This document shows positions 17,503 to 45,498 of a stretch of DNA of 64,000 bases, one piece after another. A model generated the notes under the pieces. It did not search any database and was not told the origin of the DNA. It saw only the letters and a list, made by a program, of their open reading frames with translations. A program made the translations under genes and the position numbers. Every line of letters begins with the position of its first letter. The stretch's first letter is position 1. Source of the stretch: Medicago truncatula (Eukaryota; Streptophyta; Magnoliopsida; Fabales; Fabaceae); assembly GCF_003473485.1 (NCBI RefSeq), contig NC_053044.1, positions 28,834,091 to 28,898,090 of the forward strand. The letters run 5' to 3'.

Positions 17503-17518
17503 TGGCACGGCCGTGCCA
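17503..17518. promoter_or_regulatory. U3 palindrome of the Athila-like LTR
   Basis: TGGCACGGCCGTGCCA reads identically on both strands. It lies in U3 upstream of the LTR TATA box. The 3' LTR has two derivatives at the same place (24123-24139 and 24144-24159) and the leader of ORF2 has three more (20944, 20965, 21021). Repetition at several places in one element suggests selection or amplification; a binding role is inference. Confidence 0.65.
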
Positions 17519-17635
17519 CCCTCCAGAAGACCTTTTGCTGCTTTTGCTTGGACTCCAAGCTATTCTATTTTGGCGCACAATCTACCGAGGAATATTCTTG
17601 GAATATACTTGCTTAGATTTTAAGTCAATTGTGTA

Positions 17636-17645
17636 CTATAAATAG
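17636..17645 (+). promoter_or_regulatory. TATA box of the Athila-like 5' LTR
   Basis: CTATAAATAG follows GTGTA and is conserved in the 3' LTR at about 24277. It would set transcription start about 30 bases downstream, near 17670. Confidence 0.65.
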
Positions 17646-18487
17646 AGTAGCTAGCCATCACAAATATTCGTCTTTACTTGGAATACAATAAGTGACAATT
17701 GCTTTTCTAAATAAAGTTCTTTTCCTTTCCTTTATTTTCCTGTCTTTTACTTTCATGCTTTCTCTCTTCTCCCCCATGTCTACGATGAACATGAGTGAGT
17801 AGACTTCTTCTTGTCTTGGGATTGTTGGATAAGTCTAAATGACATAATCCTAATCAAACCAAGCCCTAAGCCTTAATCTTATGTAACCCTAATTTCTTAT
17901 CTGAATTCACCGTCTTAACATGGATTAACCATTATCAAACTGTGGAAACGAAAGTGGAGGGTTTGATAATTGTTCGTCCATTATTCCAAATATCAATTCA
18001 TAAAACGAAAGTGGAGCTTTGATATTCGAACAAGTGAATTCAGACAAGGATTACAAAGTCAGCGAAATAGGTTTTGCAATCTTTGAGACATATAGTTTCG
18101 ATCTTCAAGGGAACTAATAACAATCAAGTCAGCGAAATAGGCTTGGTTGTTAGAGGAACCAAAATCCAATAGTAATCAAGTCAGCGAAATAGACTTGGTT
18201 TCTAGAGGAACTTAAGAGAAACTGTCTTGAGAAATTAGGTCTAACATAACATTATAAGCTTATGATTTTGGTTTGAGAAGGACTTGTTATTTAGATGAAA
18301 CCAACGATCCCAAGGCTCTTTTATTATATTGCTTTTTAACAGTTTAAAAACCCCCAACTTACAATTCTCTTCTCTCTTCTAATCATCTCTAAAGGTTAAT
18401 TAAATTGAACTACTCCCTGTCGGAACGATACTCTTTTATACTACTTCGGTAAGACCGTACACTTGCGGTTTTATCTCATCAAGTTTT

Positions 18488-18505
18488 TGGCGCCGCTGCC
18501 GGGGA
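18488..18505 (+). other. primer binding site (tRNA-Asp type)
   Basis: TGGCGCCGCTGCCGGGGA begins a few bases after the 5' LTR. It matches the complement of the plant tRNA-Asp 3' end except at one position. Athila/Tat-branch gypsy elements commonly use this primer. Confidence 0.78.
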
Positions 18506-18607
18506 GTAAACTAATTTAATTAAATCTTTCTTTGTGATTAGAACTCTCTTCTCTTTTCTCTTCCTCTTCTCATCTACTTTTCTTTCTTTTGTTTTACCAC
18601 TAACTTC

Positions 18608-20771
18608 TTGGGTTCTCGGTTTCTTATGCGAAGAAGTAAAAGTCTCGGAGAATTTATTCCTGAGATCGAAAGATTTTTGCATAAGAAAAAGAGAGAGGCA
18701 CAAAATAATACCGCTATGGCTGAACGTACTCTCAAAGAGTATACTACTCCTTCAACGGAAGAGCCACAAGCTATTATCGTGTACCCAACGGTTGCGGGTA
18801 ATAACTTCGAAATCAAGCCTGCACTACTCAATTTAGTGCAGCAAAACCAGTTTTCTGGATCACCCACTGAGGATCCAAATCTCCATATTTCTTCCTTCCT
18901 TAGACTCAGTGGCACCATAAAAGAGAACCAAGAAGCCGTAAGACTTCATCTCTTTCCCTTTTCCTTAAGGGATAGAGCTAGCGCTTGGTTCCATTCCCTA
19001 GAAGTCGGTTCCATTACTTCATGGGACGATATGAGGCGAGCATTCCTCGCCCGATTTTTCCCCCCATCTAAAACAGCTAAGCTTAGAGACCAAATTACGC
19101 GTTTCAATCAAAAAGATGGGGAGTCTCTCTATGAGGCGTGGGAGCGTTTCAAGGAAATGCTTAGACTTTGTCCCCACCATGGCCTAGAGAAGTGGCTTAT
19201 AGTCCACACGTTTTATAATGGCTTGTCATATACCACTAAAATGTCTGTTGATGCAGACGGAGGCTTATGCTTTGATTGAGGACATGGCTCAAAATCACTA
19301 TCAATGGACCAACGAAAGAGCCGTCACCACTCCTACTCCCTCTAAGAAAGAGGCAGGTATATACGAAGTCTCTGAATATAACCACCTTGCTGCTAAGGTT
19401 GAGGCATTAACACAAAAAATTGAAAAACTTAATGTTAATGCTGCCCAACCTTCCCCTGCATCCCCTACCTGTGAAGTCTGTGGTATAACTGGTCATACAG
19501 GTGTTGATTGTCAGTTAGGTAGTGCTGCCAATATTGAGCAACTGAATTACGCTCAATACAACCAAGGAATGAGGCCAAATCAAAATTTTTACAAAAATCC
19601 TCAAGGTTCCTATGGGCAAACAGCACCACCTGGCTATACAAACAACCAGAGAGTAGCTCAGAAATCTAGTTTGGAAATACTGTTGGAAAATTGCATGATG
19701 AATCAAAATAAACAACTTCAGGAGTTAAAAAACCAAACAGGATCTCTGAACGACTCTCTCTCCAAGCTCAATACCAAGGTTGATTCCATCGCCACACACA
19801 CCAAAATGCTTGAGACCCAAATCTCCCAAGTGGCCCAACAAGTGGCCATCTCTTCTCAAACACCAGGAGTCTTTCCTGGTCAAACTGAAACAAACACCAA
19901 AGCCCATGTCAATGCCATTTCTCTTGGGGGCAATAAGTTAGAAGAGACCATTACCAAAGCCAAAAGTGTCAAGGGAGAGAGTGTTAAGCTTCTAGGTGAG
20001 AAGAATGCGATAAAAACACCGCTTGATAAGAACAATACCCTTAATCCATTAAGGCTCACTAAGCTTAACTTGGAGGCCCAATTTGCTAATTTCCTAAACA
20101 TACTTAAAAGGATTTGCATTAAGATCCCCTTTGCTGAAGCTTTATCTCGTATGCCTCTATACGCCAAATTTTTAAGGGAAATTTTTTCAAAGAAAAAGGC
20201 TATAGATCACAAGGAAACGATAGCTTTAACTAGGGAAAGTAGTGCAATCGTCAAGAAGCAACCCCAAAAGCTTAGAGATCCAGGTAGTTTTGCCATCCCT
20301 TGTGTGATAGGAAAAGAAACCGTTGACAAGGCCTTGTGTGACTTAGGGGCTAGTGTAAGTTTGTTGCCTTTATCCCTCTTCAAAAGGATGGGAATAGGAG
20401 AGCTTAAACCGACCGAGATGATCTTAAAAATAGCAGATCGTTCTACTATCCCTCTAGCTGGCTACATTGAGGACATACCCGTCAAAATAGAAGGGATATA
20501 TATCCCGACTGATTTTGTAGTGGTCGACATAGAAGAGGACCATGATGTCCCAATAATCTTAGGACGACCCTTCCTAGCTACTGCAGGTGCTATAATAGAT
20601 GTTCAGAGTGGTAGGATAGTTTTTCAAGCAAGTGATGCAATGATTGGGTTCGAGCTGGAAAATGTTATGAAAGGTCCCGCTCTTTATTCTTGTAACATGA
20701 TTGAAGTACATAATGTGAAAGAACGCTTCCTAGCGTCAACTACACAATATGACATCTTTGATCCTTTCTAA
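18608..20771 (+). pseudogene. Athila-like gag-protease, frameshifted
   Basis: The gag part runs in frame from 18608 (a second candidate start is at 18716) to about 19250. It has the plant retrotransposon gag core with DRASAWFHSLEVGSITSWDD and ARFFPPSKTAKLRDQI. At about 19253, after SVDA, reading continues in another frame with TEAYALIEDMAQNHYQWTNE. Relatives have extra residues between these two parts, so a small deletion caused the frameshift. The second frame carries a knuckle-like CEVCGITGHTGVDC, a coiled region, and near the end a retropepsin-like domain with catalytic DLGAS (in place of DTG/DSG), then PIILGRPFLATAGAIIDV. It stops at 20771 before any reverse transcriptase. The whole is a broken capsid-protease gene. 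Confidence 0.85.
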
Positions 20772-20806
20772 GGACACTTTCTTAACGTCAAGCTAATGAC
20801 AATAAA

Positions 20807-20833
20807 CGAGCGCTTCGTGGGAGGCAACCCACG
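20807..20833 (+). other. conserved hairpin after the gag-protease frame
   Basis: GAGCGCTTCGTGGGAGGCAACCCACG contains the stem CGTGGG/CCCACG around AGGCAA. Athila-type elements carry a very similar GGGAGGCAACCC hairpin downstream of pol. Its presence right after the protease marks where RT-RNase H-integrase were removed. Confidence 0.65.
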
Positions 20834-20943: not shown

Positions 20944-21036
20944 TGGCACGGCCCGTGCTCACACTGGCACGGCCGTGCCAGACTCTCATGCACCAAACAA
21001 AAGGCCAAAGTCCAGAGTGTTGGCACGGCCGTGCCC
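20944..21036. repeat. three further copies of the 16-bp palindrome before ORF2
   Basis: TGGCACGGCCCGTGCT (20944), TGGCACGGCCGTGCCA (20965-20980, perfect) and TGGCACGGCCGTGCCC (21021-21036). They lie in the untranslated leader between hairpin and ORF2, directly before a full-consensus splice donor CAG|GTAAGT at 21042-21050. Confidence 0.8.
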
Positions 21037-21440
21037 GATCACAGGTAAGTATAACCTTACCTTTTGGACTTCTTCTTCCCTCACTCTCCAACACAAACTT
21101 CTCTCTACCTTCCACCTTCTCTCAAACCTCCATAACCATACAACTACAAACCTTCACAACCACCACCAAACCACACCCATTCACAAAATTTCTCCACCCA
21201 ATCAGTCACTAACACCATTCCAATCATAACCCACCATTCCAAAACAACTTTCATCCACCCCAACCAACATCACCCAAATTCGTAACCCTCCCTAACCTAA
21301 CCCAAAAACCATAAATTCTTCACCAACCTCCCTAACCCAACCCCAAAAACTCACCTAAACCTTCACCACAACACTAATCCAACCTTTTCCACCAAAACAA
21401 CCCTTACCCAAACCACCACACCAAAGGCAAGGTTAAGGCA

Positions 21441-22739
21441 ATGACTTCAAAGAGAAGTGGAAAGGAAGTTGCAAGCTCATCCGGAGGACCTCCCCCAAAG
21501 AAGAAAGCACAAGCCAAAAATCATGGCATCATCTTCCGGGACAACAAGCAAAGGGATAGGTACAAACTTCTAATCTCTAAACCTCTACAACCTTGCAGGT
21601 ACCCTGATAACCATGACATGAATAAGCTAGGTATTAAAGATAATGTGTTTAATCTGCTAGAAAGGTTAGGATGGGTTGATATGTTGAGACCTATGCGAGG
21701 GTATGAGAATTTCACCTATGAATTTTTAAGTTCTATTGTTTTTACGAAAGATAGGTTGAACTTTGATAACCCTAACCATAGAGTTTCTTTCCGGCTTTTG
21801 AATATTGATTACGAGATGTCTCTTCAGCACTTCTGTGATGAGATGGGCTTCGCAAATGCGGGGTTCATCCACGACTCTTGGGATCAAAATTTAAAACCGG
21901 TTGACTATCAACCCGCCGCCTTTTGGGAGCAAATCACCGGTCTTGACCAATTTAACACACATGCCAACAAAGCTAGCAACATTCACAACCCCGTACTTAG
22001 GTACCTTCAAAGGGTTATGGCTTGCACCATTAGGGGACGGAAAGAACTAGGGAACACTAGGAATGATGAACTCTTCATGCTTTGGGCTATGCTGCACAAC
22101 CAACCCATTAACACTTGTTTTTACTTGCTTGACTACCTTTCCCTTATAGGAAATAGGTCCGATAGTAGGGGAGAAATAGTAGTTGGTGGTATCATAACAT
22201 ACATAGCTGGGCGATTCGGTGTGAGTGAAGACCTAGGGATAAACAAGATCGAGGGTAACAATAGACTAAACATAGAAACTCTCATCTCTATGAATTTCAT
22301 AAAAACTCGAGTCCCCTTTGTCTATACACTCCAACTCAATGTGCCCATCTTGATTTTATTGCCTAACCCATCTCGAACTAACACCGAGGTGGAAGCAAAT
22401 TTGTTGTATGTTGATGATGACCCACATGTGCACATAGAACAGCATAATGAAGAAACAGAGGGTGCACACTTGCATCAAGAAGAGGAAGGTGCACAACTGC
22501 ACCATGATGAGGAACACCATGACCCTAATGAAGGTGAAACAAATGAAGATGCAAGATGAGCATGGATGACTACCGAGGTCGAAAGAATAAGCACCGAGCA
22601 ACAAAGGCAAGGTGTTGAACTCATGAGCATAAGACACGATGTCCAAAGGGGCAACCGCATATCCGAAGAAAATAACCAAATGCTTCGGAACATGATGCAC
22701 CACTTTCACCTCCAAGGTCCTCCATATGGACCTCAATGA
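21441..22739 (+). pseudogene. Athila ORF1-like protein with one internal stop
   Basis: A 372-residue frame (stop TGA at 22557-22559) continues in the same frame to a second stop at 22737-22739, giving 433 codons with one nonsense codon. The N terminus is basic (KRSGKEV, PPPKKKAQAK), like a nuclear targeting stretch. The body (ERLGWVDMLRPMRGYENFTY, VSFRLLNIDYEMSLQHFCDE) resembles the plant retrotransposon ORF1 family of Athila elements. The C terminus is acidic and His-rich, then a coiled-coil stretch after the stop (EVERISTEQQRQ). The function of this family is not known. If the stop is bypassed or recent, the longer protein may be the ancestral one. Confidence 0.75.
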
Positions 22740-23879: not shown

Positions 23880-25122
23880 TGATGAGTCATTTATATGCTA
23901 TTTTAATATGCTTTTTAGTTTAGTTTTATTTAGATTTTATATAATTTTATATTAGTATTATTTCCTTTTTAGGATAGTTTACTTTAAATTGCAATTTATT
24001 ATATTTCAGGGAAGAATATTGGATGGATTGAGTCTTGGAGCAAAAGAAAGGGATTTGGAGCAAATTGGACACGAAAATACGAAGATTGGGAAACAAAATA
24101 TATCTCCCACAAGTCAGAAGCCTGGCACGGCCCGTGCTAGCCTTGGCACGGCTGTGCCACCCTCCAGAAGACCTTTTGCTGCTTTTGCTTGGACTCCAAG
24201 CTATTCTATTTTGGCGCACAATCTACCGAGGAATATTCTTGGAATATACTTGCTTAGATTTTAAGTCAATTGTGTACTATAAATAGAGTAGCTAGCCATC
24301 ACAAATATTCATCTTTACTTGGAATACAATAAGTGACAATTGCTTTTCTAAATAAAGTTCTTTTCCTTTCCTTTATTTTCCTGTCTTTTACTTTCATGCT
24401 TTCTCTCTTCTCCCCCATGTCTACGATGAACATGAGTGAGTAGACTTCTTCTTGTCTTGGGATTGTTGGATAAGTCTAAATGACATAATCCTAATCAAAC
24501 CAAGCCCTAAGCCTTAATCTTATGTAACCCTAATTTCTTATCTGAATTCACCGTCTTAACATGGATTAACCATTATCAAACTGTGGAAACGAAAGTGGAG
24601 GGTTTGATAATTGTTCGTCCATTATTCCAAATATCAATTCATAAAACGAAAGTGGAGCTTTGATATTCGAACAAGTGAATTCAGACAAGGATTGCAAAGT
24701 CAGCGAAATAGGCTTTGCAATCTTTGAGACATATAGTTTCGATCTTCAAGGGAACTAATAACAATCAAGTCAGCGAAATAGGCTTGGTTGTTAGAGGAAC
24801 CAAAATCCAATAGTAATCAAGTCAGCGAAATAGACTTGGTTGCTAGAGGAACTTAAGAGAAACTGTCTTGAGAAATTAGGTCTAACATAACATTATAAGC
24901 TTATGGTTTTGGTTTGAGAAGGACTTGTTATTTAGATGAAACCAACGATCCCAAGGCTCTTTTATTATATTGCTTTTTAACCGTTTAAAAACCCCCAACT
25001 TACAATTCTCTTCTCTCTTCTAATCATCTCTAAAGGTTAATTAAATTGAACTACTCTCTGTCGGAACGATACTCTTTTATACTACATCGGTAAGACCGTA
25101 CACTTGCGGTTTTATCTCATCA
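23880..25122 (+). repeat. 3' LTR of the Athila-like element
   Basis: 1243 bp. Nearly identical to the 5' LTR except for about ten substitutions and a 20-odd-bp insertion at 24133-24153 that doubles the U3 palindrome. The host sequence after it is the 3' flank of the GDSL gene (compare 31531 onward). Confidence 0.92.
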
Positions 25123-25883
25123 CACTTCATACATCATTTTACAAAAAGTGGTTGGATATAGTACAATGGGCTAGTCTCCTACAACCTGGAAATCAATTTC
25201 CGACTCTAGACCGAGAGATGTGCCTATATTTAGCATCCAACGGTGTTTTCAATATGATTTACCTTCAGCGGAGGAAACCTATGGAAGCTAAACAAATCAT
25301 AAGCAAAATATTAGTTTACTTTTCGCATGATCGATAATCTCATTGTGATTTGGTTCTTATCTCCAAAAAATAATTTATCATTGAAAATCGAATGAAATAT
25401 GTATTCTTCAATATTCTTTAAAAAATAATGTATTATGTGATATTCTTTATTTTTGGAATAATATAGATTTTTCTCCACTTTATCATAGTATATATCTTTG
25501 AAACTCAAAACAGTGAAGAACCTTGACCTATAAATTATGAATACCATACTTATCTACTATTACTTTCAAATTGTTGATTGTCATTACCAAATTTTCTACA
25601 TTCAGTTCTAAAATAAAATCATACCCACATTTATTTTATACTTGTTTTAGTTTTTCTAAAATAAAAAATTCATAATTATACGTGTTTTCATCCCCCTATC
25701 TATCTAGTAGAAAACTCTTATTTTTTGAACAAACATTTAGGACGACAAAAATTAGTTGTCTTTTAAATATATTCTCACTCATGTTTAGTCATATCCTCAA
25801 TAATGGTGAAAATGAGATTGGTCATATCTACATAAAAGCATTTTATCATAACATATATCACATTTATATCAAGTAGCACATAA

Positions 25884-26560
25884 AACTACTAGAAAATTTG
25901 GTTTTAGCGACGATTGGAATCCGTTCCCAAATAGGCTACATTCCGTCGCAAATGTTTTTCTGACAGATTTTGCGACGCAGACAATATCCGTCGTAATATT
26001 GGGGGTCAGAAAAAGTTAGCGAGGAAAAATCAAATCGGTCACTATTTCGGAAGGTTTACATTTAGTCACAAACATCAAAACTCCGATGCTAAATCTCTCT
26101 TAATATGGATATTTGAAACACAATATTCATCACAAATAATTGGTGCAACAAATATCTGTCACAATTTTCTGAGGTAAAAAAATTGTTGCAAATTTCTGAG
26201 AGAATATCCCCGCTGTTAAATTTTTGCGAATTTGATTAGCATCGCAGTGAAGGCTGGCGCTATTCTGCATGACAAAAATTTGCGGCTTTTAGATTTTCCG
26301 TCGCAAATATGTTTTTTTTGTTTTGCCTTAAAATTAGTTTAGGGAATTTCTCAATTCTTTCTGAAAGCACTTTTGGAATATAAGACAAGGTGAACCACAA
26401 ATATCAAAACTTTGAAGAAAACAAAATACGATAAAAATCACATTAATAATTGTTGAAAAACCTTTTTGGTTGCGTTCACAAGAATCACAGTACTTATCTT
26501 TTGTATCAAAATATATTGAAATAATTACTAAATAATATTAACCATCTGAATTTGATCAAC
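25884..26560. mobile_element. CACTA-type transposon end, unit 1
   Basis: The terminus ACTACTAGAAAATTTGG (unit 2 has CACTACTAGAAAATTTGG) is followed by many subterminal words of the type TTTGCGACG, CCGTCGCAAAT and GCGACGCAGAC in both orientations. This is typical of En/Spm-CACTA ends. The first C of CACTA is mutated here. The inner limit, where LINE sequence begins, is approximate. Confidence 0.7.
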
Positions 26561-26564
26561 AATC

Positions 26565-28826
26565 CATATGATCTTTGGTCTAAGGTCCTCTATAATTAGT
26601 ATGGAAGGAACAATGACCTTAGGATTACTATGAATTCTCAACCATATGATTCTCTTTTGGAATGCATTATCAGACATATGAGAAAATTTTCAGCATAATA
26701 TTATGTGGCAGTTGGGCGACGGGAACAACATCAATTTTTGGCTGGATAAATGGACCCCAAGTGGCACCTCTCTTATGTCCATCACTAATCAGACAAATAT
26801 TGACACAACCTTTTCTGTTAAGGATGTGGTAACCCCTTCAGGAGATTGGGATTATAATTTTATTACTTCTAAGTTACTGTCTGTAACAGCCCGTTTTTCG
26901 CTAGAATTATTTTTATTTAATTATTATGTATGTTTATATGTGCTTGTATGTGCTTAATTGCCTCTGTGTGTATTTTATTCGGGATTAGTGGATTTTGGCT
27001 TAAGAAGGGTATTTTAGTCATTTTAGACCCAACCGTATTTTGATCATTTGATGAGCAAGGGTAAATTAGTCTTTTGTTAAGATAATTATTTTGAGCGTTT
27101 TAAGTGGGAATAATTATTTTGTTAAGATAATTTGTTATTTATGATGGTGTTGTAGCTATAGATTGTATGAATTTAATCATGTTTGTTTACTTTCATATGA
27201 TTATATTTAATTGTGAATTACGAACTAACCCCCAGTGGTCGTTTGGTTGACTGCTTACCTTATTCATATGGATGGGTAGACGACGTACATGATTAGTCGC
27301 TTTTCTTATTGAGTATGCTTGGAGGATAGCTTTGGTCGGAGCTACCTCGTTTACCGTTTTGATGTCGTATTTCCTAGGGGTCGATCTAGATGTTTTATTA
27401 TTATATATCTGTTGGGGATTTTTGAGACTATGTAGTACTATGAGTTGTATGATGACATGGTTACTTGGTGACTTATTTTATTATGGTTGACTGGTGTGAT
27501 GATTATTGTTATTCGATGGAGAGATTTATTATTATTCCGCTGCGATGTTTTGAGAAAAATTTTGTGCATGCTTAATGAATCAGAGGCAATGTAACATCTA
27601 AATTCTATATGATTGAATTATTTGCGTAAATTATTGCTTTTAGAGTTTAAGGTGTTACACCGTCTACCTTTGCTTTTCAGGTCATCGCCCTCCCAGCTCC
27701 TAACTACACGGACGGACCTGACAATACTGTTTGGGGAGGAACCAACACTAGGAAATTCACAATTCAAAGTGCCTATGAATCTCTAAACAATAGAGCTCAG
27801 TCTATCGAGGGAGAATGGAAGGCCTTGTGGAGTTGGAAAGGCCCTCATAGAATTCAAACTTTTATGTGGATGGCGGCTCATGAGTGACTTCTCGCTAATT
27901 ATCGTAGGAGCAAATAGGGTGTCGGAATATCTACCACATGCTCTGGATGTGATAAAAACAATGAAACCACTATTCATGTTTTGCGGGATTGCCCTATAGC
28001 AACACAAACTTGGATAAGGTTAGTCCCTTCAAATCAAATCTCTAATTTTTTTTCATTTAACTGCAGGATTGGATCTTCGAGAATATCAATCATCAGCTGC
28101 ATGGTATTCAGAATAAAAACTGGAGAACAACTATTTTAGTGGTTTGCAGGCACATATGGATGTGGAGGGAGGAACAAAACTGTTTTTTAGGATGATTTTC
28201 GTCGTCCGACTGACCCAATGTATGCTATTCCCAAAATGGTTGAAGACATTGATAACTACTCCCACCATCCTGTGAAAACTCACCAACACGATACTATTTT
28301 TATTGGTTGGTAAAGATCTCAGGACGGGTAGGCTAAGCTTAATTGTGATGAAGCATACAAGGAATCCTTGGGTCTAGCCGGTTGTGGTGGTCTATTTTGG
28401 AACTCAGATGGTAGATGGCTTAAAGGGTACACTCGCAAAATCGAAAATTGTGACGCGCTTTGGGCTGAAATGTGGGAAATGTACTTGGGAATGCAGTTTG
28501 CTTAGAGACATGGTTTCCACCATCTTCAAGTGGAAAGTGACTCAAAAACTATGGTTGACATGATCACAGGGAAAATTAATATCAATGGCAATTCGTCCAC
28601 CTTGGTGCGCCGTATACATGAGCTCTTAAAGTTGAATTGGCTGGTGCATTTCAATCATACATGGCGAGAAGGAAACACGAGTGCTGATTGGGTACCTAAT
28701 CTTAATTTTTCTATATACTATTTTAACATTCATGTTATGGATACACCTCCTAGTGAGGTCTCTAGCCTCCTTTTTTATGACATTTATGGGGCTAGCATTC
28801 CTAGAAACATTCATGTAACTTTGTAG
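26565..28826 (+). pseudogene. LINE reverse-transcriptase C-terminal part (zf-RVT + RNase H), unit 1
   Basis: Translated in pieces this gives the C-terminal half of a plant non-LTR retrotransposon polyprotein. The zinc-binding part includes NINFWLDKWTPSG, then (after the solo LTR at 26882-27659) KALWSWKGPHRIQTFMWMAA and CSGCDKNNETTIHVLRDCP. The RNase H part includes LNCDEAYKESLGLAGCGGLF, LQVESDSKTMVDMI and HTWREGNTSADW with the acidic and His positions. Several stops are present, most shared with unit 2 and so older than the duplication. The reverse transcriptase itself is absent. No function is expected. Confidence 0.85.
26882..27659. mobile_element. solo LTR inside the LINE, unit 1
   Basis: Starts TGTAACAGCCCG and ends GGTGTTACA, the termini of many chromovirus-type gypsy LTRs. 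Target duplication CTGTC / CCGTC (26877-26881 and 27660-27664), with one base changed on the left. At 778 bp it is shorter than the unit 2 copy because about 250 bases in the middle and a 12-base piece are deleted. Confidence 0.85.
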
Positions 28827-29344
28827 TTCTTTTCGTTTTCTGTACGTCAGCCCTCTTTTATTACCCAAAATTTTTTACTCTTTCCATTTCTTTTTGAGTG
28901 TCATCTTATATTACTCAGATTAATTAAGTGATTTTTTTGAGTTTTTTTTTATTCTAATGTACCTTCATTTTAATTCACCAATATTTTTTGTGTGTGTGTA
29001 TAAAGAGTCTCTTTTTCCAATAAACATGATCTTAACTATTATAGGGAATCAAATTTAGTTTTATGGAAGTTTAAGTTTTTACATAACAAAAACAAACGAA
29101 CTTTGTTTAAAAGAAGCTTTGTATAAAAAGAAAATTATTTTTAGTTTTATTAAAAAGGAGTAAGTAGGTGTAATTGAGAAAAAAGTATCAACGACAAATT
29201 ATACCAATAAACTATCAAAATGGCAGCTAAATAGAAACAACAAAAATATACTCAAACGACACTAAAAATAAACATAAGGAATATAACACACACATATGGT
29301 GTGGGCGAAAAGCACTTTTAATAATGATAATAAATAAACCAAAC

Positions 29345-29415
29345 GATTGAAATCAAGTAGTTACTGAGCTTCACACGAATAATATGTGTTTGATTCCTGG
29401 TGAAAAAAAAAACAT
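29345..29415 (+). repeat. tRNA-like SINE remnant (in all three units)
   Basis: AGTAGTTACTGAG resembles an A box and GTGTTTGATTCCTGG a B box, followed by an A-rich run. Equivalent sequence is at 15777-15840 and 36035-36105. It does not fold as a tRNA, so a SINE fragment is more likely. Confidence 0.4.
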
Positions 29416-29750
29416 AAAAAGATAATTAATATAACTATGACTATTTCTTTTATCAATATTTTTATTATAAAATATTTCATATTCATAACATCTATGTGGA
29501 AATATTTAATAAGGAATAAAGTCATTATGACCTCTAATTTTAGTTTACAAAATCTTGTTATAGAGAGTTTTGTTGGAAAAACCAAGATTATAAGTAACCA
29601 AAATATTGACAACAAATAATGTAAAGCATAACAAAAACGTGTTAATTGATGTGTAAATGTTGAACAATATCAGCTAAATATCGAACATCACAGTTTTACA
29701 AGAATAAAAATAGTAAAGCGGTTTATAGGTTAACAAATTAGAAAGATTGT

Positions 29751-29758
29751 TATATAAA
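29751..29758 (+). promoter_or_regulatory. TATA box of GDSL copy 2
   Basis: TATATAAAG lies 63 bases before the ATG at 29821. Relative to unit 1 about 30 bases between two TATATA words are deleted, leaving one TATA box. Confidence 0.65.
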
Positions 29759-29820
29759 GCTGATTAATTTCATTTTTCAAGCATATTCTAATATCAATCC
29801 TTTTTGTATTTTTTCATAAC

Positions 29821-32293: not shown

Positions 32294-32985
32294 CACTACT
32301 AGAAAATTTGGTTTTAGCGACGATCGGAATCCGTTCCCAAATAGGCTACATTCCGGCGCAAATGTTTTTCTGACAGGTTTTGCGACGCAGACAATATCCG
32401 TCGTAATATTGGGGGTCGGAAAAACATCTTTCACAATTTATTATTGCGACGCAGACAATATCCGTCGTAATATTCGGAAGGTTTACATTTAGTCACAAAC
32501 ATCAAAACTCCGATGCTAAATCTCTCTTAATATGGATATTTGAAACACAGATACTCGTCACTGATAATTGGTGCAATAAATATCTATCACAATTTTCTGA
32601 GGTAAAAAAACTGTTGCAAATTTCTGAGAGAATACTCCCGTTGTTAAATTTCTGCGAATTTGATTAGCATCGCAGAGAAGGCCGACACTACTCTGCAAGA
32701 CAAAAATTTGCGGCTTTTAGATTTTCCGTCGCAAATAATTTTTTTTTGTTTTGCCTTAAAATTAGTTTAGGGAATTTCTCAATTCTTTCTCAAAACACTT
32801 TTGGAATATAAGACAAGGTGAACCACAAATATCACAACTTTTAAGAAAACATAATACGATAAAAATCACATTGATAATTGTTGAAAAACCTTTTTGGTTG
32901 CGTTCACAAGAATCACACTACTTATCTTTTGCTTCAAAATATATTGAAATAATTACTAAATAGTATTAACCATATGAATTTGATC
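32294..32985. mobile_element. CACTA-type transposon end, unit 2
   Basis: Terminus CACTACTAGAAAATTTGG, with subterminal GCGACG and CGTCGCAAAT repeats in both orientations. The CACTA start is intact here, unlike units 1 and 3. A short direct duplication of TTGCGACGCAGACAATATCC (about 32379 and 32445) is specific to this unit. The inner border with LINE sequence is approximate. Confidence 0.72.
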
Positions 32986-32989
32986 AACA

Positions 32990-35514: not shown

Positions 35515-35562
35515 TTCTTTTCGTTTTCTGTACGTCAGCCCTCTTTTATTACCCAAATTTTT

Positions 35563-38500
35563 TTACTCTTTCCATTTCTTTTTGAGTGTCATCTTATATT
35601 ACTCCAATTAATTAAGTGATTTTTTTGAGTTTTTTTTTTATTCTATTGTACCTTCATTTTAATTCACCAATATTTTTTTTTGTGTGTATAAAGAGTCTCT
35701 TTTTCCAATAAACATGATCTTAACTATTATTATAGGGAATCAAATTTAGTTTTATGGAAGTTTAAGTTTTTACATAACAAAAACAAACGAACTTTGTTTA
35801 AAAGAAGCTTTGTATAAAAAGAAAATTATTTTTAGTTTTATTAAAAAGGAGTAACTAGGTGTAATTGAGAAAAAAGTATCAACGACAAATTATACCAATA
35901 AACTATCAAAATGGCAGCTAAATAGAAACAACAAAAATATACTCAAACGACACTAAAAATAAACATAAGGAATATAACACACACATATGGTGTGGGCGAA
36001 AAGCACTTTTAATAATGATAATAAATAAACCAAACGATTGAAATCAAGTAGTTACTGAGCTTCACACGAATAATATGTGTTTGATTCCTGGTGAAAAAAA
36101 AAACATAAAAAGATAATTAATATAACTATGACTATTTCTTTTATCATTATTTTTATTATAAAATATTTCATATTCATAACATCTATGTGGAAATATTTAA
36201 TAAGGAATAAAGTCATTATGACCTCTAATTTTAGTTTACAAAATCTTGTTATAGAGAGTTTTGTTGGAAAAACCAAGATTATAAGTAACCAAAATATTGA
36301 CAACAATAGCCAAGAAGACATGAAGAAAGGAGTAAATTTTGCATTTTCAGGTGCTAGTGCACTTAAAAAGATTTATTTCGCTCGTCGTGGAATCATAGAA
36401 CCACAAACAGATCATTCATTGAGTGTGCAATTTGAGTGGTTTAAGAAACTAAAGCCATTCATGTGTAAAAGCAAAAAAGGTTTCATTATAACTCCCTACA
36501 TATTTTGTTTGTTTTAAATATATAAATCTTCCTCATGAAATAACACAATTTTTGTTATGATGTGTGGCAGAATGCACTAGCTACTTCAAAAAATCATTGT
36601 TTATAGTGGGAGAGATTGGTGGGAATGATGTTCTACAGTATATCTCATCTAAAAAGTTTACAAAAATAAGAAAAGTTGTTCCCTATTTGGTTGAATCAAT
36701 TACACATACCACCATCGTATGTTATATCAACTTTAAGTACTTGAATGTCTTCTTTAACCATAAAAACTAAGCTCCATTAAATATATGACAAAATGAATAT
36801 TATTCTTGGCTAAATGTAATAGTGATTTTTTTCTTCTATTTTTTTTATCTTCAGTCATTAATCAAAGAAGGAGCCGTGGAGCTAGTGATTCCTGGAAACT
36901 TTCCAATTGGGTGTAATGCTGGTGTGTTGACAAATTTGATTAGTACGAAGAAAGAAGACTATGATGAACTTGGGTGCCTGATAGCTTACAATGCTTTCGC
37001 CGAATACTACAATGAACAACTTAAAAATTCTATAGAGACATTAAGACATAAATACCCTCAAGCTAAGATAATATATTTTGACTACTACAACAATCTCAAA
37101 CGTTTATATCAAACACCACAGCAATATGGTGTGTTGAGTTACTATTATATTTTCTTGTTTATTTTACCATAATTTATTTTTGTCAAATTCATTAAACGTC
37201 ATTTTATGTAAATTAATGATGCAGGTTTTATTTCTGATAAGGAAGAGATTTTGAAAGCATGTTGTGGAGGAAGTGGACCATACCATGTTAATCTTGAAAT
37301 ATTTTGTGGAACGGGTAGCTCAACAGTTTGCCCCGACCCTTCAAAATATATAAATTGGGATGGCTCACACTTAACTGAAGCATCATATAAGTTAATAGCA
37401 AAGGGACTAGTTGAAGGCCCTTTTGCAAATCCTTCCCTTAAAACTCCTCTTTTCAATATAGCTTAGAATTGGTTAAGAAAAAAGTTGCACTTCATACATC
37501 ATTTTACCAAAAGTGGTTGGATATAGTAGTACAATGGGCTAGTCTCCTACAACATGGAAATCAATGTTCGAATCTAGACCGAGAGATGTGCCTATATTGA
37601 GTATCAAAGAGTGTTTTCAATATGATTTACCTTCAGCGGAGGAAACCTATGGAAGCTAAAACAAATCATGAAGAAAATATTACTTTACTTTTCGCATGAT
37701 ATGTAATCTCATTGTGATTTAGTTCTTTACTCCAAATATAATTTATGAATAACATGCTTATCTACTACTATTACTTTCAAATTGTTGATTGTCATTACCA
37801 AATTTTATACATTCAATTCTAAAATAAAATCATACACACATTTATTTTATACTTGTTTTGGCTTTTCTAAATTAAAAAATTAATAATTATACGTGTTGCT
37901 CTCCCCGATCTATCTAGTTGAAAATTCTTCTATTTTTTGAACAAACCTTTAGGACGTCACAAAATTAGTTGTTTTTTAAATATATTCACTCATGTTTAGT
38001 CATATCCTCAATAATGGTGAAAATGAGATTGGACATTTCTACATAAAAGCATTATATCATAACATATATCACATTTATATCAAGTAGCACATAAGAATAC
38101 TAGAAAATTCGATTTTAGCGACGGCTGGCATCTGTAGCAAATGAGGCTACCTACAATCCGCCGAAGAGGTTTTTCTGACGGATTTTGCAACACAGACAAA
38201 ATCCATGGTAATATTGGGGGTCGGAGAAAGTTAGTGAGGGAAAATCAAATCTGCACTCTCTGGGGCGGTTTTCATTTGGTCGCAAACAGCAAAACTCCAA
38301 CGCTAAACCTCCCTTAATATGGATATTTGAAACCGAGATTTTCGTCACAAAATTTCAACGCAATAAATATCCGTCACAAATTTCTAAGGGAAAAAATTGT
38401 TGCCAATTTCTGAGAGAATAGTCCCGTTGCTAAATTTCTGCGAATTTGATTAGTGTCACAGTTAAGGCCGACGCTACATTGAAAGACAAAAATTTTGCCA

Positions 38501-38755
38501 CTTTTAGATTTTTTGTTGCAAATAGTATTTGTTTTTTCTTCCTTAAAATTAGTTTAGGAAATTTCTCAATTCTTTCTCAAAACACTTTTGAAATATAAGA
38601 CAAGGTGAACCACAAATATCAAAACTTTTAAGAAAACAAAATACGATAAAAATCACATTCATATTTTATAAAAAACTTTTTCGGTTGCATTCACAAGAAT
38701 AACACTACTTTTCTTTTGCATCAAAATATATTAAAATAATTACTAATAGTATTAT
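35563..38755 (+). repeat. tandem segment, unit 3 (partial)
   Basis: Matches units 1 and 2 from the ACTCTTTCCATTTC word through the GDSL gene and its 3' flank into the CACTA end. It then diverges near 38755, where the LINE part is absent. A deletion of about 740 bases removes the GDSL promoter, exon 1 and intron 1. The 3' flank is more diverged than between units 1 and 2, so unit 3 split off first or evolved separately. Confidence 0.85.
36128..37466 (+). pseudogene. GDSL copy 3, exon 1 lost, chimeric frame
   Basis: Exon 1 with signal peptide and catalytic Ser is gone. The deletion joins upstream sequence to the middle of exon 2 at about 36302-36308, at a CAACAA word present at both ancestral borders. 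The rest of exon 2 (to 36479), exon 3 (36571-36716), exon 4 (36855-37128) and exon 5 (37225-37466) are open with normal splice sites. The upstream ATG at 36128 is in frame with exon 2, and the whole model closes at 1014 bp (337 aa). The product would lack block I, so it cannot be an ordinary GDSL enzyme. Without the old promoter, expression is doubtful. Called a pseudogene, with a chimeric gene as the alternative. Confidence 0.85.
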
Positions 38756-40310: not shown

Positions 40311-40478
40311 TAGGATAAATTGAACATCAAACTAGGAGCTGCAAAGCAATTGAACCCGTAGGACTTACACCGCAAATATTGTACCTTCTTTTCAATATTA
40401 ACTACTAGACTAATAGAATACCTTGCCTCCACATTTTGTAAGAGGAATTAGTGGTGGAACTAAATTTTAGTTGAGAAC

Positions 40479-40921
40479 TGTTGCAAATTCGATGAGAAAA
40501 CTCACACCAATAACAAACTTTATGTGTGGAGCAAGTGATAATCAGACAACCAAAATCAAAGTGTATGGAACAATTGTAAACACAAGCCAAAAGTAGAAAA
40601 CATCAACGAGAGAAAAGGAAGAGAGAACACAAAAGAACTTTTTGACCCAGTTCGGTCCAAATTGACCTAGTCTGGGGGAGAGAGCAGCCCTCCGTTTCAC
40701 TATATGACGAGTAACGTTACAAAAGAGATATCAATGGGTTACAAGAATAAGTCTCCCGCCTAATTCTACCCAAAGTCCCAGCCTCTTCTCGTAACCAAGA
40801 GACTCAATCCTAATAGTGTTTCCCAAGGTGAATCAACCCTCAAAACCTAGTGTTTGTTCCAAAGAGACAAACTCTATACAAACCCTAGTTTTGTTGTTGC
40901 CTTTCTAAACCCTTGTTTCAG

Positions 40922-40957
<36 letters not shown>

Positions 40958-41198
40958 GTTTGCTCTGATACAAGGTCTATATTTATAGTGAAAGTAATCC
41001 CTTAAAAAACTGAAACAAATCTTCAATAAAAATACGTTTTATTTTTATCTTTAATCGCACTATCGTGGCACAATTCGATCCAATCGTGGCACAATTTTTT
41101 CAGTGATTGCTCCAGAATCTTGCTTCAACAATCGTTGCACGAAGCTTCTCCATCGTGGCACGATTCTTCAGAATTCTGATTTTAAGTTAACTCTCACA
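40479..41198 (-). repeat. LTR of the copia element (3' LTR by orientation)
   Basis: 720 bp. Contains a (CT)n run at 40924-40954 and, on the minus strand, a TATA box ACTATAAATATAGAC at 40975-40989. Four 13-bp imperfect palindromes of ATCGTGGCACGAT type lie at 41062, 41083, 41131 and 41152. Confidence 0.92.
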
Positions 41199-41339
41199 AT
41201 TCTCCACCTTGACTTCAAATCAGTGATGATGCCAATCATCAACCTCCTTGCTGCTCTTTCCCTTGCTTCCCACTAATCCAAGTAGCTCCACAAGTTTACA
41301 CCTCTTAACCCCTTCAGCCCTCGAAATGTCTTCCGCCTT

Positions 41340-41505
41340 CTCGAAGGTCCTTGCAGTCCAACTACACTAGGAGTTTTAGGTAGTCCCACAAGCATTCACC
41401 TTAACCTCTTCAGCCATCGGAACGTCTTCTGTCTTCTCGAAGAGTCCTTGCAGTCCAACTACACTAGGAGTTTTAGGTAGTCCCACAAGCATTCACCATA
41501 ACATC
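41340..41505. repeat. internal direct repeat of the copia element
   Basis: The word TCCTTGCAGTCCAACTACAC and the bases after it occur at about 41348 and 41446, roughly 55 bases each, with near identity. Located between the LTR and gag remnant, no coding frame. Confidence 0.75.
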
Positions 41506-41855
41506 TTCAACGCAGGACATCTCCCGCTTCCTTGAAGGTCACCTTGCATCCAATCACCCTTGGCCTTCTTTTAGAGTAATCCCGCAAGCCGTGCTATACA
41601 TTCTTCAACCTCATGAAGAAATCCCTTGCTCGCCATAGAGCATAGCACCCAAGGTCCTTCATAGTTGTACCATTACCGTTGTGTTCAACTCCACCTCATG
41701 CTGAGCGTACTCTACCTCAACTAGAAAATGCGTACATCCCACTATGTCTTCAACCTTTAAACTCCACCTCAACAGGTAGATCATGAGTATTCTTACCACC
41801 GCCTCTCCAGGCTGATGTTGAGTGTTTAACGTCTCTCCAGACGATCACCGTTCCA

Positions 41856-42350
41856 CTAGGCATCAAGCCCAAGGTGAGACACATCACCTTCTTCATCCTC
41901 CAAACAACACCACACCATCAGAGCACCCGCATCCTCAAGACGCAACTTAATGTTCTCCAAATCACCAATGATTTTGTTGAACTCCACAAGTAGCCCCATG
42001 ATAGCCTTTGACTTTACCATCTTGAATGAGTAAAGTTGTTGCTTTAGGACTTTCCGATGAGCCAAAGACTTTGTCATATACAAATATTCAAACTTTGACC
42101 ACATCGATGTCGCGGTTGTTTCCTTTGCTGCTTCTCTCGAAACTTTATACCCGAGGCACAAGACAATGGCACTCCTGGCCTTGTCCACCATCTCGGTGTT
42201 CTCCGCTCGTGACATGGTGACCGGTAACGAACCTTCACCCTTCAAAGCTTTCTCACACTTCTGCTGTATTAACAATGCTTCCATCTTTACCTTCCATAAC
42301 CCAAAATCGTTATCTCCGGTGAACTTCTCAATATCCCACTTCGAACCCAT
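41856..42350 (-). pseudogene. Ty1/copia gag remnant
   Basis: A 164-residue frame beginning MGSKWDIEKFTGDNDFGLWK just after the primer site. It is typical of plant copia gag: the F-x-G-x-N/D-F-x-x-W motif, then ALKGEGSLP and MWSKFEYLYMTKSLAHRKVL, then QQLYSFKMVKSKAIMGLLVE. It stops before a zinc knuckle or protease. With no pol in the element it is at most a capsid-like fragment. Confidence 0.85.
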
Positions 42351-42395
42351 GATACTTGATTATCCTTTGACCTTTGCCCCACGGTGGGCGCCAAT

Positions 42396-42836
42396 TGTTG
42401 CGAATTCGATGAGAAAACTCACACCAATAACAAACTTGATGTGTGGAGCAAGTGATAATCAGGAAACCAAAATCAAAGTGTATGGAACAATTATAAACAC
42501 AAGCCAACAGTAGAAAACAACAGCAAGAGAAAAGGAAGAGAGAACACAGAAGAATTTGTTGACCCAGTTCGGTCCAAATTGACCTAGTCTGGGGGAGAGA
42601 GCAGCCCTCCGTTTCACTATATGATGAGTAACGTTACAAAAGAGATATCAACGGGTTACAAGAATAAGTCTCCCGCCTAATTCTACCCAAAGTCCCAGCC
42701 TCTTCCCGTAACCAAGAGACTCAATCCTAATAGTGTTTCCCAAGGTGAATCAACCCTCAAAACCTAGTGTTTGTTCCAAAGAGACAAACTCTATACAAAC
42801 CCTAGTTTTGTTGTTGCCTTTCTAAACCCTTGTTTC

Positions 42837-42896
<60 letters not shown>

Positions 42897-43137
42897 GTTT
42901 GCTCTGATACAAGGTCTATATTTATAGTGAAAGTAATCCCTTAAAAAACTGAAACAAATCTTCAATAAAAATACGTTTTATTTTTATCTTCAATCGCACC
43001 ATCGTGGCACAATTCGATCCAATCATGGCACGATTTTTCCAGTGATTGCTCCAGAATTTTTCTTCAACAATCGTGGCACGAAGCTTCTCCATCGTGGCAC
43101 GATTCATCAGAATTCTGATTTTAAGTTAACTCTCACA
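42396..43137 (-). repeat. LTR of the copia element (5' LTR by orientation)
   Basis: 742 bp, nearly identical to the other LTR. The length gap is mostly the longer (CT)n run at 42839-42892. TATA on the minus strand at 42914-42928. Palindromes at 43001, 43022, 43070 and 43091, the last (ATCGTGGCACGAT) a full palindrome around its central base. Confidence 0.92.
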
Positions 43138-43142
43138 AGAAC

Positions 43143-44182
43143 GAAGATATACATTGTTTTATTCGTGAAACTTATATACAAATTAACATAGATATACAGT
43201 TTTGTATCTGTGGCATGTAAACAATTTTATAACAGCGAAGTACACGACTTCTTAAGTGACAGAACTAACATTGAGAATTCCGAACATAAGTTTTAGGAAG
43301 ATCAAATAATATAGGCGACTAAGGACAGACCATAATAAAGGCGGACTTTCTAACAATCATCGATCTTATAAGTTATGTCGGATGTTTTGTCTTGGCTAGA
43401 CATTATTTGTACTTTTTGAACAACTCTAGTCATGTTTCTCAATTTATAGGTTTGGATTTCCATGGAAAAAAGTGAAGGAGTGTCTTCACTCGATATGGAT
43501 GATTTGTTTGCTCATTATTTTGAAACAACATAACTAATTGTTTTAGGCAGCCAAAATAAGCTTAAATGTACACTTGTTGATAAAGATTTGGTATGATCTA
43601 AGATTAAAAATAAATCTAAGGATTTCTCTTACAATTATTGTCAATGAAATACTCAACCGCTTAGGTGAGGTGTGCATGCTACTAAATTTTGATTTATTTT
43701 ATTTTATTGGGTTATTAGCACCGTTATGTTTTGATGTCTTTTGTTTCTTGACTTTATAACTTTTCAATCTTAGCACTTCTTGTGCTTTGATTGTTTTATT
43801 TTATCTAATTATATTTTAGCCTCTTCAAAGAAAAATATTGATTGACGAAAGTATAACAAAATAACCAAGTTGAAAAATATAAATTAATTATCACATATGT
43901 AAAAATCATTGTCCAAAAATGATTGTCATTTTTAGTTTTTAATGTGATATTAATTATTGTGTTTTTCATTGTTCCCTTTAATTAATATTACGAGAATCAC
44001 TTACAATTTATTATTCTTCACTTCATGTTTAACACAATAACTAAAATCACAATTGAGTAAAATCACAATTTTTTTGCGTTCAACATTTTTTTAATTTTTG
44101 TAAAATGATCAAATGCGATGATTATTGTGGGGCGGAGAAAGTATTCCATATAGTCTCATACATAAACAAAGATTTTTTTTAG
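43143..44182. other. AT-rich intergenic, no feature recognised
   Basis: Between the copia element and the solo LTR. No frame with coding character and no clear repeat. Confidence 0.45.
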
Positions 44183-44187
44183 ATTCA

Positions 44188-45498
44188 TGATGAAGTATTT
44201 TTCTATCAATTAAAAGTAAGTATTTATATATCGTCTCCTCAGCGACTAGTGTGATACCATACACCGTTCAACATCGATTATCATTTTAAGTTAAGGATTA
44301 ATTGGTTGTTTGTTGTAAAAACTACGTCAACTAAAATACGAGAATAAAAATGGAGAGTAATAAGGCGTAAAATCGTTGGAATTAGAGTTCGTTAACCAAG
44401 CGTCGAATATAACCTAATGATCACATATACGGATTCTACCTTTTTACCGATACTATCACATATCACTCAACAACATCATTCATGTCTAAATGATATTGTG
44501 AGATCAATCGTATCGTTTAATCGATGATTTCTCAATCTTTTAAAAGATCTGAAAGCTTTAAGTTCGGATACTTTGTGTGATTATCAAAACATCAACCCTA
44601 TGTCTAGAATCATGCATTGTTTTGATAGATGAATATTCTAAACCTAGATTCAAAAGTATTTCTCAATAGCATTTAAATCAAAAATAAGAATGGAATGCAA
44701 GAATAAACTCAATATCTTGTAAATTGCTAGAATCATATATTCAAAAGATCAAAAGATTACATTCTAAGTTTGATCAAGTACCTCTAATCCCAACTAAGAA
44801 GATTTAGTTGATCATTGTCATGATAACATTACAAAAGTGGAAGAAAAGATGAAGATCCATGCTAAGAGCTTGATTTCTCAAAGTTTCTTGATGAATCCAC
44901 ACTCAATCACTCTTGCCATATGAAGAACAACTATTTTCACCCTATTCTCTCACTAAAGTAATGATAAGATGTGTTTTGAAATGAGGGAATGAGCTTTTAT
45001 ACTTCTGCAGAATTTTACATTCTCACCAGGAAGAATTTGTTCACCATGGCGAGCTGACTTTTCTTTGCTAGTGGGTTTTTGCCACGTCATCCTCCAGTTG
45101 TTCCAAACCGCCTTAGCTCGCTAGGCATGATTTTTTTCACCATGGCGAACTCTGAACTTCAAAAACATGGTCTCTGGAATCACTTCTCGCCATCTTGCTC
45201 GCCTTTCCTTCGCTATGGCGAACTTGAGTGCGAGCTGGAAGCTGACATTCTGGAACTCATTCACGCCATGGTGACAAATTTCGCTATGGCGAAATTTCCT
45301 TTGCTCCTCTATTGATGTTTCTTTCTTTCGTTCTTGTCTTGTTCATTCTTTTCCTGCACAATTGGATCAAATAAGACATAAAAAGCATAAGAAGACATTT
45401 TCTTACATTTTCATAGTTTTTCCTCAAATAACTTGTGAAACAAATAATCAAAAGTGCTTAATATATATCCAATATTTACTACTTTCTAGCACTTAACA
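44188..45498 (-). mobile_element. solo LTR with U3 palindromes, TSD ATTCA
   Basis: 1311 bp, on the minus strand starting TGTTAAGTGCTAG and ending CTTCATCA. A perfect 5-bp duplication ATTCA flanks it (44183-44187 and 45499-45503). On the minus strand a TATA box GTATAAAAGC lies at about 44993-45003. Upstream of it five palindromes of the type TTCGCCATGGCGAA lie at 45040, 45136, 45209, 45261 and 45280. No internal region or second LTR is present, hence a solo LTR, likely gypsy (Athila/Tat-like in layout). Confidence 0.85.

What the first reader, a model, noticed from the sequence alone, without database searches (positions are those of the whole stretch)
17503..45293. Three unrelated LTR types carry different palindromes of the same format just upstream of their TATA boxes
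Athila-like LTR: TGGCACGGCCGTGCCA, 120 bp upstream of TATA. Copia LTR: four ATCGTGGCACGAT-type 13-mers, 75-175 bp upstream of TATA. Solo LTR at 44188: five TTCGCCATGGCGAA-type 14-mers, 35-290 bp upstream of TATA. The motifs differ in sequence but share length (13-16 bp), dyad symmetry, irregular clustering and position in U3. This looks like convergent use of dimeric binding sites (activator capture, or targets of a diversifying host or element factor) rather than shared ancestry. I know of no named system that describes this. The positions are observed; the function is inference.
Basis: partly seen in the sequence, partly recalled or inferred. Interest (0 to 1): 0.85.

Follow-up and report, generated by a model that had tools for sequence, protein, structure and literature searches.

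The report
Paired palindromes in retrotransposon promoters
Several families of jumping genes in this legume carry short mirror-symmetric DNA sites in front of their promoters, often in pairs about 21 bases (two turns of the helix) apart, and related families spell the sites differently at matching positions, which suggests a dimeric protein whose target differs from family to family.

Summary
The palindromes are real and above chance. (1) The solo LTR is homologous to LTRs with the Asp-type (Athila) primer site, and the copia LTR shares a ~108-bp four-site cassette with a gypsy LTR (L132). (2) A named precedent exists: Sirevirus "RM boxes" (PMC2829016), palindromes upstream of TATA plus a second cluster 5' of ENV. 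The window's Athila element has the same plan: sites in U3 and a cluster (20946-21035) before a TATAA and the ATHILA ORF. (3) Apparently new: sites often lie in pairs ~21 bp apart. A genome pattern search allowing spacings of 12-42 bp listed 58 places: 54 at 21, the rest at 19-20, with 23 different spacers. (4) Homologous LTRs keep site positions but differ in site cores at most of them. (5) 20 Met-primed stretches show no excess. Best reading: paired dimer-binding sites of a promoter-proximal module whose specificity turns over. The factor is unidentified, binding is untested, and RNA hairpins remain a rival. Constraint beyond flanks is clear only in the internal Athila cluster; two of five covariation measures do not exceed shuffles.

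The parts
17260..18481 (+). 5' LTR of the Athila-like element (TGATGAG...CTCATCA)
   Evidence: 99.3% identical to the 3' LTR (1212 of 1221 aligned bases)
17503..17518 (.). dyad TGGCACGGCCGTGCCA (a single unit here)
17637..17645 (+). TATA box of the 5' LTR
   Evidence: read from the sequence
18608..20771 (+). gag (PF03732) and protease-like ORFs (18608-19279, 19218-20771); protease matches are below the curated cut-offs
20946..20958 (.). internal dyad 1, GCACGGCCCGTGC
20964..20981 (.). internal dyad 2, centre 20.5 bp from dyad 1
   Evidence: 21 copies aligned
21022..21035 (.). internal dyad 3; 12 of 21 aligned copies carry a further unit just upstream of it (20.5 bp in L095)
21050..21054 (+). 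TATAA just downstream of the internal cluster, present in 19 of 21 copies (putative internal promoter, inferred)
21441..22559 (+). ATHILA ORF (PF03078, E 2.4e-25), in the env position
23880..25122 (+). 3' LTR of the Athila-like element
24125..24137 (.). 3' LTR dyad unit 1
24144..24159 (.). 3' LTR dyad unit 2 (one mismatch), 20.5 bp from unit 1
40477..41199 (-). 3' LTR of the copia-gag element (boundaries within about 3 bp)
41062..41164 (-). four ATCGTGGCACGAT-type dyads (41062, 41083, 41131, 41152), start-to-start 21-48-21
40977..40987 (-). TATA box of the 3' copia LTR
   Evidence: read from the sequence
41856..42350 (-). copia-type gag ORF (PF14223)
42394..43139 (-). 5' LTR of the copia-gag element (boundaries within about 3 bp); 96.4% identical to the 3' LTR (697 of 723)
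43001..43103 (-). four dyads (43001, 43022, 43070, 43091), spacing 21-48-21
42916..42926 (-). TATA box of the 5' copia LTR
   Evidence: read from the sequence
44188..45498 (-). solo LTR of the TCGCC family
45040..45293 (-). five TCGCCATGGCGA-type sites (45040, 45136, 45209, 45261, 45280), all imperfect in this copy
44993..45001 (-). TATA box of the solo LTR
   Evidence: read from the sequence

Best explanation
The palindromes are binding sites for a dimeric DNA-binding protein. They often form pairs two helical turns apart (centre to centre about 21 bp), so that two dimers sit on the same face of the helix and can bind cooperatively. One to three pairs lie upstream of the TATA box in U3, and in Athila-type elements a further cluster lies inside. 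In the window's element this precedes a kept TATAA and the ATHILA ORF, so the module probably regulates two promoters of one element. The recognised spelling differs between families; between homologous LTRs it differs at most sites while positions are kept, and it can be passed as a cassette to a copia-gag LTR. Shown: presence, pairing, positional conservation, two-sided differences at the -50 site of one family, the same dyad in LTR and interior of the window's Athila element. Inferred: protein binding, cooperativity, promoter control, direction of cassette transfer. The factor is unidentified; I put a host transcription factor and an element-encoded factor at about equal odds.
For: Spacing: genome pattern ATCGTGSCACGAT-N{0,30}-TCGTGSCACGA gave 232+241 hits, control 0; of the 58 places in the truncated listing 54 are at 21 bp, 2 at 20 and 2 at 19, none elsewhere in 12-42; 53 shown with letters have 23 distinct spacers in 7 loose clusters. 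In nine representative regions 18 of 35 adjacent spacings are 19.5-22 bp, random placement 2.0 +/- 1.4, largest 9 in 20,000 (the nine are not independent). L132 and L138 keep the same six-site plan (21-48-22-52-21 and 20-49-21-53-20) with different cores; L128 and L138 are homologous (63% over 553 bp) with different cores at aligned positions. At the -50 site of the TCGCC family the outermost pair is Watson-Crick in 20 of 24 rows vs 7.6 expected, in three types; covariation score 0.290 vs 0.124 +/- 0.025 shuffled (0 of 500), at most 0.110 when slid. The window element's interior carries the same dyad as its U3; by coordinates the L132 element has its own dyad in both places. Internal Athila sites: identity 0.978 vs 0.877 outside, 3 of 221 shifts as high. 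Dyad excess in Asp-primed but not Met-primed stretches. In the Athila and TCGCC groups a pair joins one even and one odd dyad, each symmetric by itself.
Against: No binding or expression data. No constraint beyond flanks in the copia family (0.915 vs 0.910, 99 of 193 shifts as high); weak and not significant in the TCGCC family (0.775 vs 0.714, 30 of 168) and the Athila U3 (0.988 vs 0.962, 25 of 258). In one search two of five measures do not exceed shuffles (pairs with a two-sided change 3 vs 2.4, 202 of 500; further pair types 10 vs 8.8, 130 of 500), and those are the two that the tool calls robust to relatedness. At the -146 site the outermost pair is Watson-Crick in only 10 of 26 vs 6.8 expected, the next in 15 of 26 vs 8.6. 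The families are related, so spacing counts are not independent events. Paired palindromes also fold into RNA hairpins (z -1.6 to -4.65). Not every site differs: the -31 and -125 sites of the TCGCC family look alike in both groups. Two Athila copies in the sample (L129, L137) lack the sites, read by eye. Spacings of about 30 and 50 bp also recur among CTCGCCATGGCGAG sites, and the window's solo copy has no 21-bp pair.
Confidence: 0.58

Rival explanations
1. RNA or DNA hairpins: two neighbouring palindromes pair with each other to make a 12-16 bp stem with a short loop, which feeds the host small-RNA pathway (as argued for maize Sirevirus palindromes) or serves the element's RNA. The 21-bp spacing would then be a loop-size constraint.
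For: Folding of seven stretches: z -1.62 to -4.65, mostly with stems between neighbouring sites; the copia stretch, whose pairs have the same orientation, has z -2.90. Sirevirus palindromes are described as small-RNA hotspots (passages of PMC5311732, and PMC10760457).
Against: Hairpins would favour opposite orientation of odd-centred sites, but 35 of 53 listed pairs have the same orientation and 18 the opposite. The same-orientation pair of L138 that was folded does poorly (z -1.62) yet keeps the spacing. Internal symmetry of single sites is not needed for a two-site hairpin. Within sites, A.C mismatches (26) are not rarer than G.U wobbles (18) over sites -50 and -146 of 24 LTRs (at -146 alone 6 vs 9, so weak).
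Confidence: 0.22
2. Mutational origin without function: replication or reverse-transcription template switching perfects quasi-palindromes and copies ~21-bp units, and copies inherit them.
For: Unit number changes: the window's Athila element has one unit in one LTR and two in the other although the LTRs are 99.3% identical; 21 internal clusters have three (10), four (10) or two (1) GGCACGG strings. No excess constraint in the copia family.
Against: Tandem copying would copy spacers too, but spacers differ while spacing stays at 19-21. Dyad excess in the Asp-primed sample, none in the Met-primed one. In the internal cluster the spacer between units 2 and 3 diverged (0.763) while sites did not (0.978).
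Confidence: 0.1
3. Ordinary host transcription-factor sites captured independently by each family, with no coevolution (overlaps with the best explanation on protein binding, so the odds do not sum to one).
For: Symmetric, clustered, upstream of TATA, as in Tnt1 box I (cited in PMC2829016). The same 13-mer in a gypsy and a copia-gag LTR fits a common host factor.
Against: Site plans are kept while most cores differ between homologous LTRs, which independent capture does not explain simply.
Confidence: 0.3

Closest known systems
Sirevirus RM boxes (Bousios et al. 2010, PMC2829016; abstract and passages, the section on the motif, and the first part of the discussion seen)
   Same: Repeated palindromes, mostly different from element to element, in the LTR upstream of TATA, plus a second cluster 5' of the envelope-position gene.
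   Different: Here in Ty3/gypsy Athila-type LTRs and a copia-gag element; fewer copies in the window element; no general CGG-CCG core; ~21-bp pairing, which the parts seen do not mention. The paper calls the motif Sirevirus-specific.
Maize Sirevirus LTR palindromes and host epigenetic response (Bousios et al. 2016, Genome Res 26:226; not held, known only through passages of PMC5311732 and PMC10760457)
   Same: Variable palindromes in the LTR regulatory region.
   Different: Small-RNA role not testable here; other superfamily and other plant group.
VANC targets of VANDAL elements, Arabidopsis (PMC5735166; abstract and passages seen)
   Same: Short non-coding motifs that differ between related elements, also found in an element unrelated to VANDAL (AT9TSD1).
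   Different: DNA transposons (recalled), tandem-repeat motifs, element-encoded protein known; here dispersed paired dyads and no protein shown.

Membership tests
Sirevirus RM boxes | palindromic motif repeated upstream of TATA in the LTR | tested here: met
   the Athila 5' LTR has a single unit
Sirevirus RM boxes | further cluster 5' of the ENV-position gene | tested here: met
   window 20946-21035 before the PF03078 ORF; for L132 by position only, about 5.8 kb after the primer site, no gene seen there
Sirevirus RM boxes | at least eight copies per element (3' LTR plus linker) | tested here: not met
   window Athila: 2 in the 3' LTR and 3 internal
Sirevirus RM boxes | CGG-CCG core | tested here: not met
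   present in GGCACGGCCGTGCC, absent from ATCGTGCCACGAT and TCGCCATGGCGA (read from the motifs)
Sirevirus RM boxes | carried by a Sirevirus (Ty1/copia) | tested here: not met
   PF03732 gag and PF03078 in the window Athila element; PF03732 gag in the L132 element. The window copia-gag element was not tested for Sirevirus features.
Sirevirus RM boxes | sites form a CpG island | not tested
   -
Athila (Ty3/gypsy) | gag of the Ty3 type, Asp-type primer site, ATHILA ORF | tested here: met
   window element; the primer-site name is recalled. For the solo LTR only the primer-site class of its relative L139 is known.
VANDAL/VANC system | motifs that differ between related elements | tested here: met
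VANDAL/VANC system | motifs in tandem repeats | tested here: not met
   spacers differ
VANDAL/VANC system | element-encoded sequence-specific anti-silencing protein | not testable with these tools
   ATHILA ORF model (mean pLDDT 69.7) has no match at E <= 0.001

The most novel reading that the evidence does not exclude
Athila-type retrotransposons encode (perhaps in the ATHILA ORF, whose own upstream region carries the sites) a family-private dimeric DNA-binding protein that binds paired 21-bp-spaced dyads at both the LTR and an internal promoter, to activate or un-silence its own family. Protein and sites coevolve, so families become insulated from one another, and non-autonomous copia-gag elements parasitise it by acquiring the cassette: a VANC-like system in LTR retrotransposons.
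Probability: 0.22. Interest if true: 0.88.

Novelty: new variant of a known kind. Interest (0 to 1): 0.62.

Why it matters
It extends a feature described as specific to one copia genus to a gypsy lineage, adds a geometric rule (two helical turns), and shows homologous LTRs whose sites are spelled differently at most positions. That makes a long-standing question testable with short synthetic sites: do plant retrotransposons depend on host factors, or do they carry their own coevolving regulators?

Tried and rejected
Chance palindromes: rejected. Three wholly unrelated LTRs: rejected. Irregular spacing: rejected for most families. Copia sites under stronger constraint than flanks: tested, not found. 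A first conservation count that treated gaps as differences was dominated by unit gain and loss and showed no excess in the sites; it was redone on substitutions only. ATHILA ORF as a recognisable DNA-binding fold: AlphaFold2 model, no match at E <= 0.001 in PDB or BFVD. Intrasite RNA pairing: A.C versus G.U counts do not favour it, weakly. Literature search for five exact motifs: no paper. A concordance test between sites -50 and -146 (32 of 48 vs 15.5, 0 of 20,000 permutations) is confounded by relatedness and is not leaned on.

Rows dropped before counts: one search found 29 rows with the anchor; site -50 was counted on 24 and site -146 on 26 that scored at least 8 of 12. Of the five left out at -50, three (L034, L036, L064) belong to other families and two (L067, L069) are weak sites. 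One search used the 17 distinct rows of those 24. One search used 21 of 21 internal copies, 30 of 30 copia, 27 of 30 Athila U3 and 18 TCGCC-family rows (window plus 17 of 20 loci). One search folded seven stretches of my choice.
Full report
What is there. The Athila-like element (LTRs 17260-18481 and 23880-25122, 99.3% identical over 1221 aligned bases) has TGGCACGGCCGTGCCA in the 5' LTR and two units in the 3' LTR, and the same palindrome three times inside, at 20946-21035. The copia-gag element (minus strand) has four sites in each LTR, one of four perfect. The solo LTR (minus strand, 44188-45498) has five imperfect sites. Against shuffles of the stretch upstream of TATA, four of five LTRs have more quasi-dyads than expected at P 0.001-0.023 and one at P 0.075. 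Genome-wide, exact sites far exceed their reversed controls: 6277 vs 0, 1851 vs 2, 16 vs 0; one type, GTCGCCATGGCGAC, is rare (2 vs 1).

Families. The Athila-like element carries Ty3-type gag (PF03732) and, in the env position, an ATHILA ORF (PF03078, E 2.4e-25); the copia-gag element has PF14223. No pol ORF of 150 residues or more is listed between the window element's LTRs. The solo LTR aligns over about 740 bp (60%) with L139, an LTR found by its Asp-type primer site. The copia LTR shares a 108-bp stretch (69%, E 3e-11 in a two-sequence comparison) holding four sites with L132, whose element encodes a PF03732 gag; the other matches between these two LTRs are again site pairs or short and low-scoring. 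So the three window LTRs are not three independent origins.

Sample by primer site. From primer-site patterns (first part of each listing, chosen by hand) I took 20 Asp-primed and 20 Met-primed places and fetched upstream stretches. Perfect dyads over the whole stretches: Asp 34 vs 11.7 +/- 3.5 in shuffles (largest 22 of 200); Met 14 vs 12.7 +/- 3.3. In the Asp set 12 of 20 carry a perfect dyad of one of the site types; three more (L128, L138, L141) carry near-dyads such as ATCGTGCTCCGAT and ATCGGCCACCGAT, read by eye; five of 20 have none (L129, L131, L134, L136, L137), of which L131 looks like coding sequence rather than U3.

Pairing. Sites often lie in pairs about 21 bp apart: copia 21-48-21; L132 21-48-22-52-21; L138 20-49-21-53-20; L128 one pair at 20 among four detected sites; Athila 20.5; TCGCC family 19.5-21.5 in L083, L084 and L139. 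18 of 35 adjacent spacings fall in 19.5-22 bp, random placement 2.0 +/- 1.4. The representatives are partly homologous, so the stronger test is the genome pattern with a free gap of 0-30: 58 places could be read from the truncated listing of 473 hits on both strands, all on two chromosomes; 54 at 21 bp, 2 at 20, 2 at 19. Five of the 58 were listed without letters and count for spacing only; the other 53 have 23 distinct spacers in 7 loose clusters. Many of these are copies of a few families. Against a universal rule: CTCGCCATGGCGAG sites also recur at about 30 and 50 bp, and the window's solo copy has only an 18-bp pair.

Changes of spelling. L128 and L138 are homologous LTRs (63% over 553 bp) whose sites align but carry different cores; at up to three mismatches four sites were found in L128 against six in L138. 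L132 and L138 share the six-site plan with cores that differ at two of 13 bases. In the TCGCC family the outermost pair of the -50 site is Watson-Crick in 20 of 24 rows vs 7.6 expected, in three types (GC 7, TA 7, AT 6); at the -146 site only 10 of 26 vs 6.8, with the next pair 15 of 26 vs 8.6. On 17 distinct rows the covariation score is 0.290 vs 0.124 +/- 0.025 (0 of 500 shuffles; at most 0.110 when slid), but the number of pairs with a two-sided change (3 vs 2.4) and of further pair types (10 vs 8.8) do not exceed shuffles, so relatedness may explain part of it. A tree of the flanking sequence shows the site type following clades, with L070 and L074 holding the GC type at -50 and another type at -146, so the two sites did not switch at one step. 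Not all sites follow: those at -31 and -125 look alike in both groups.

Interior. In 20 other copies and the window the internal dyads are nearly invariant (0.978) while the spacer between units 2 and 3 has diverged (0.763; outside overall 0.877; 3 of 221 shifts as high). A TATAA about 15 bp after the last dyad is present in 19 of 21, a GTAAGT splice-donor-like string in only 7 of 21. By coordinates, the L132 element has pairs of its own, different, palindrome inside (C1:17229819 and 17230013) as well as in its LTRs, and a second element (C2:19043981-19058059) has one inside at 19050892; they lie about 5.8-6.0 kb after the primer sites. I could not fetch these interiors.

Results against. Copia sites are no more conserved than their flanks (0.915 vs 0.910, 99 of 193 shifts as high); Athila U3 and TCGCC differences are in the right direction but not significant by shifts (25 of 258, 30 of 168), and CpG columns of TCGCC sites are less conserved than the four outside (0.766 vs 0.846). 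Paired palindromes form RNA hairpins (z -1.62 to -4.65 in seven stretches). The ATHILA ORF model gives no fold match, so DNA binding by it is a guess.

Mechanism and rivals. Symmetry of each site, constant helical phase with free spacer sequence, and position before TATA-like boxes fit paired dimer sites best (0.58). I lowered this from 0.62, the hairpin rival rose from 0.20 to 0.22 and interest fell from 0.63 to 0.62 on re-checking, because two covariation measures and the copia hairpin score (z -2.90) had been left out. Hairpins are the main structural rival: they do not need each site to be symmetric, and 35 of 53 pairs have the orientation that gives a central mismatch. Even-plus-odd dyad pairs (Athila, TCGCC) also fit protein sites better.

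Known. The Sirevirus RM boxes are the named precedent, including the cluster before ENV (PMC2829016: abstract and passages, the motif section, first part of the discussion). That paper reports them as absent from classic copia elements. The listings seen showed no report of them in Athila, which is not proof of absence. The 2016 Sirevirus paper was not held. VANC targets (PMC5735166, passages) are the closest case of motifs that differ between related elements.

Noticed in passing
17503-17518 versus 24125-24159: The two LTRs of one young element differ in palindrome number (one versus two units), so a unit was probably lost or gained after insertion.
   Followed up: partly
41200-42393: Short copia-gag element with a 1.2-kb interior and a primer-site region beginning TTGGCGCCCACCGTGGGGC; it looks non-autonomous and its primer tRNA was not determined.
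   Followed up: no
45707-47150: A direct tandem duplication with a period of 789 bp, near identical (300-bp reference copies 100%).
   Followed up: partly
468-581 and 706-810: Two GGGTAA(T/A)TTACCC-like palindromes and two copies of AAAGAGGCCTCTTT 91 bp apart, in a stretch not recognised as an LTR.
   Followed up: partly
63463-63595: A 53-bp perfect inverted repeat (63543-63595) with three TAAACTCAGTTTA copies beside or overlapping it.
   Followed up: no
25159-38637: Large repeated blocks about 5.8-6.7 kb apart (68-100% identical), a local multi-copy region that was not analysed.
   Followed up: no
48299-48985: ORF with a glycosyltransferase family 90 domain (PF05686, E 1.9e-49), perhaps a host gene exon.
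   Followed up: no
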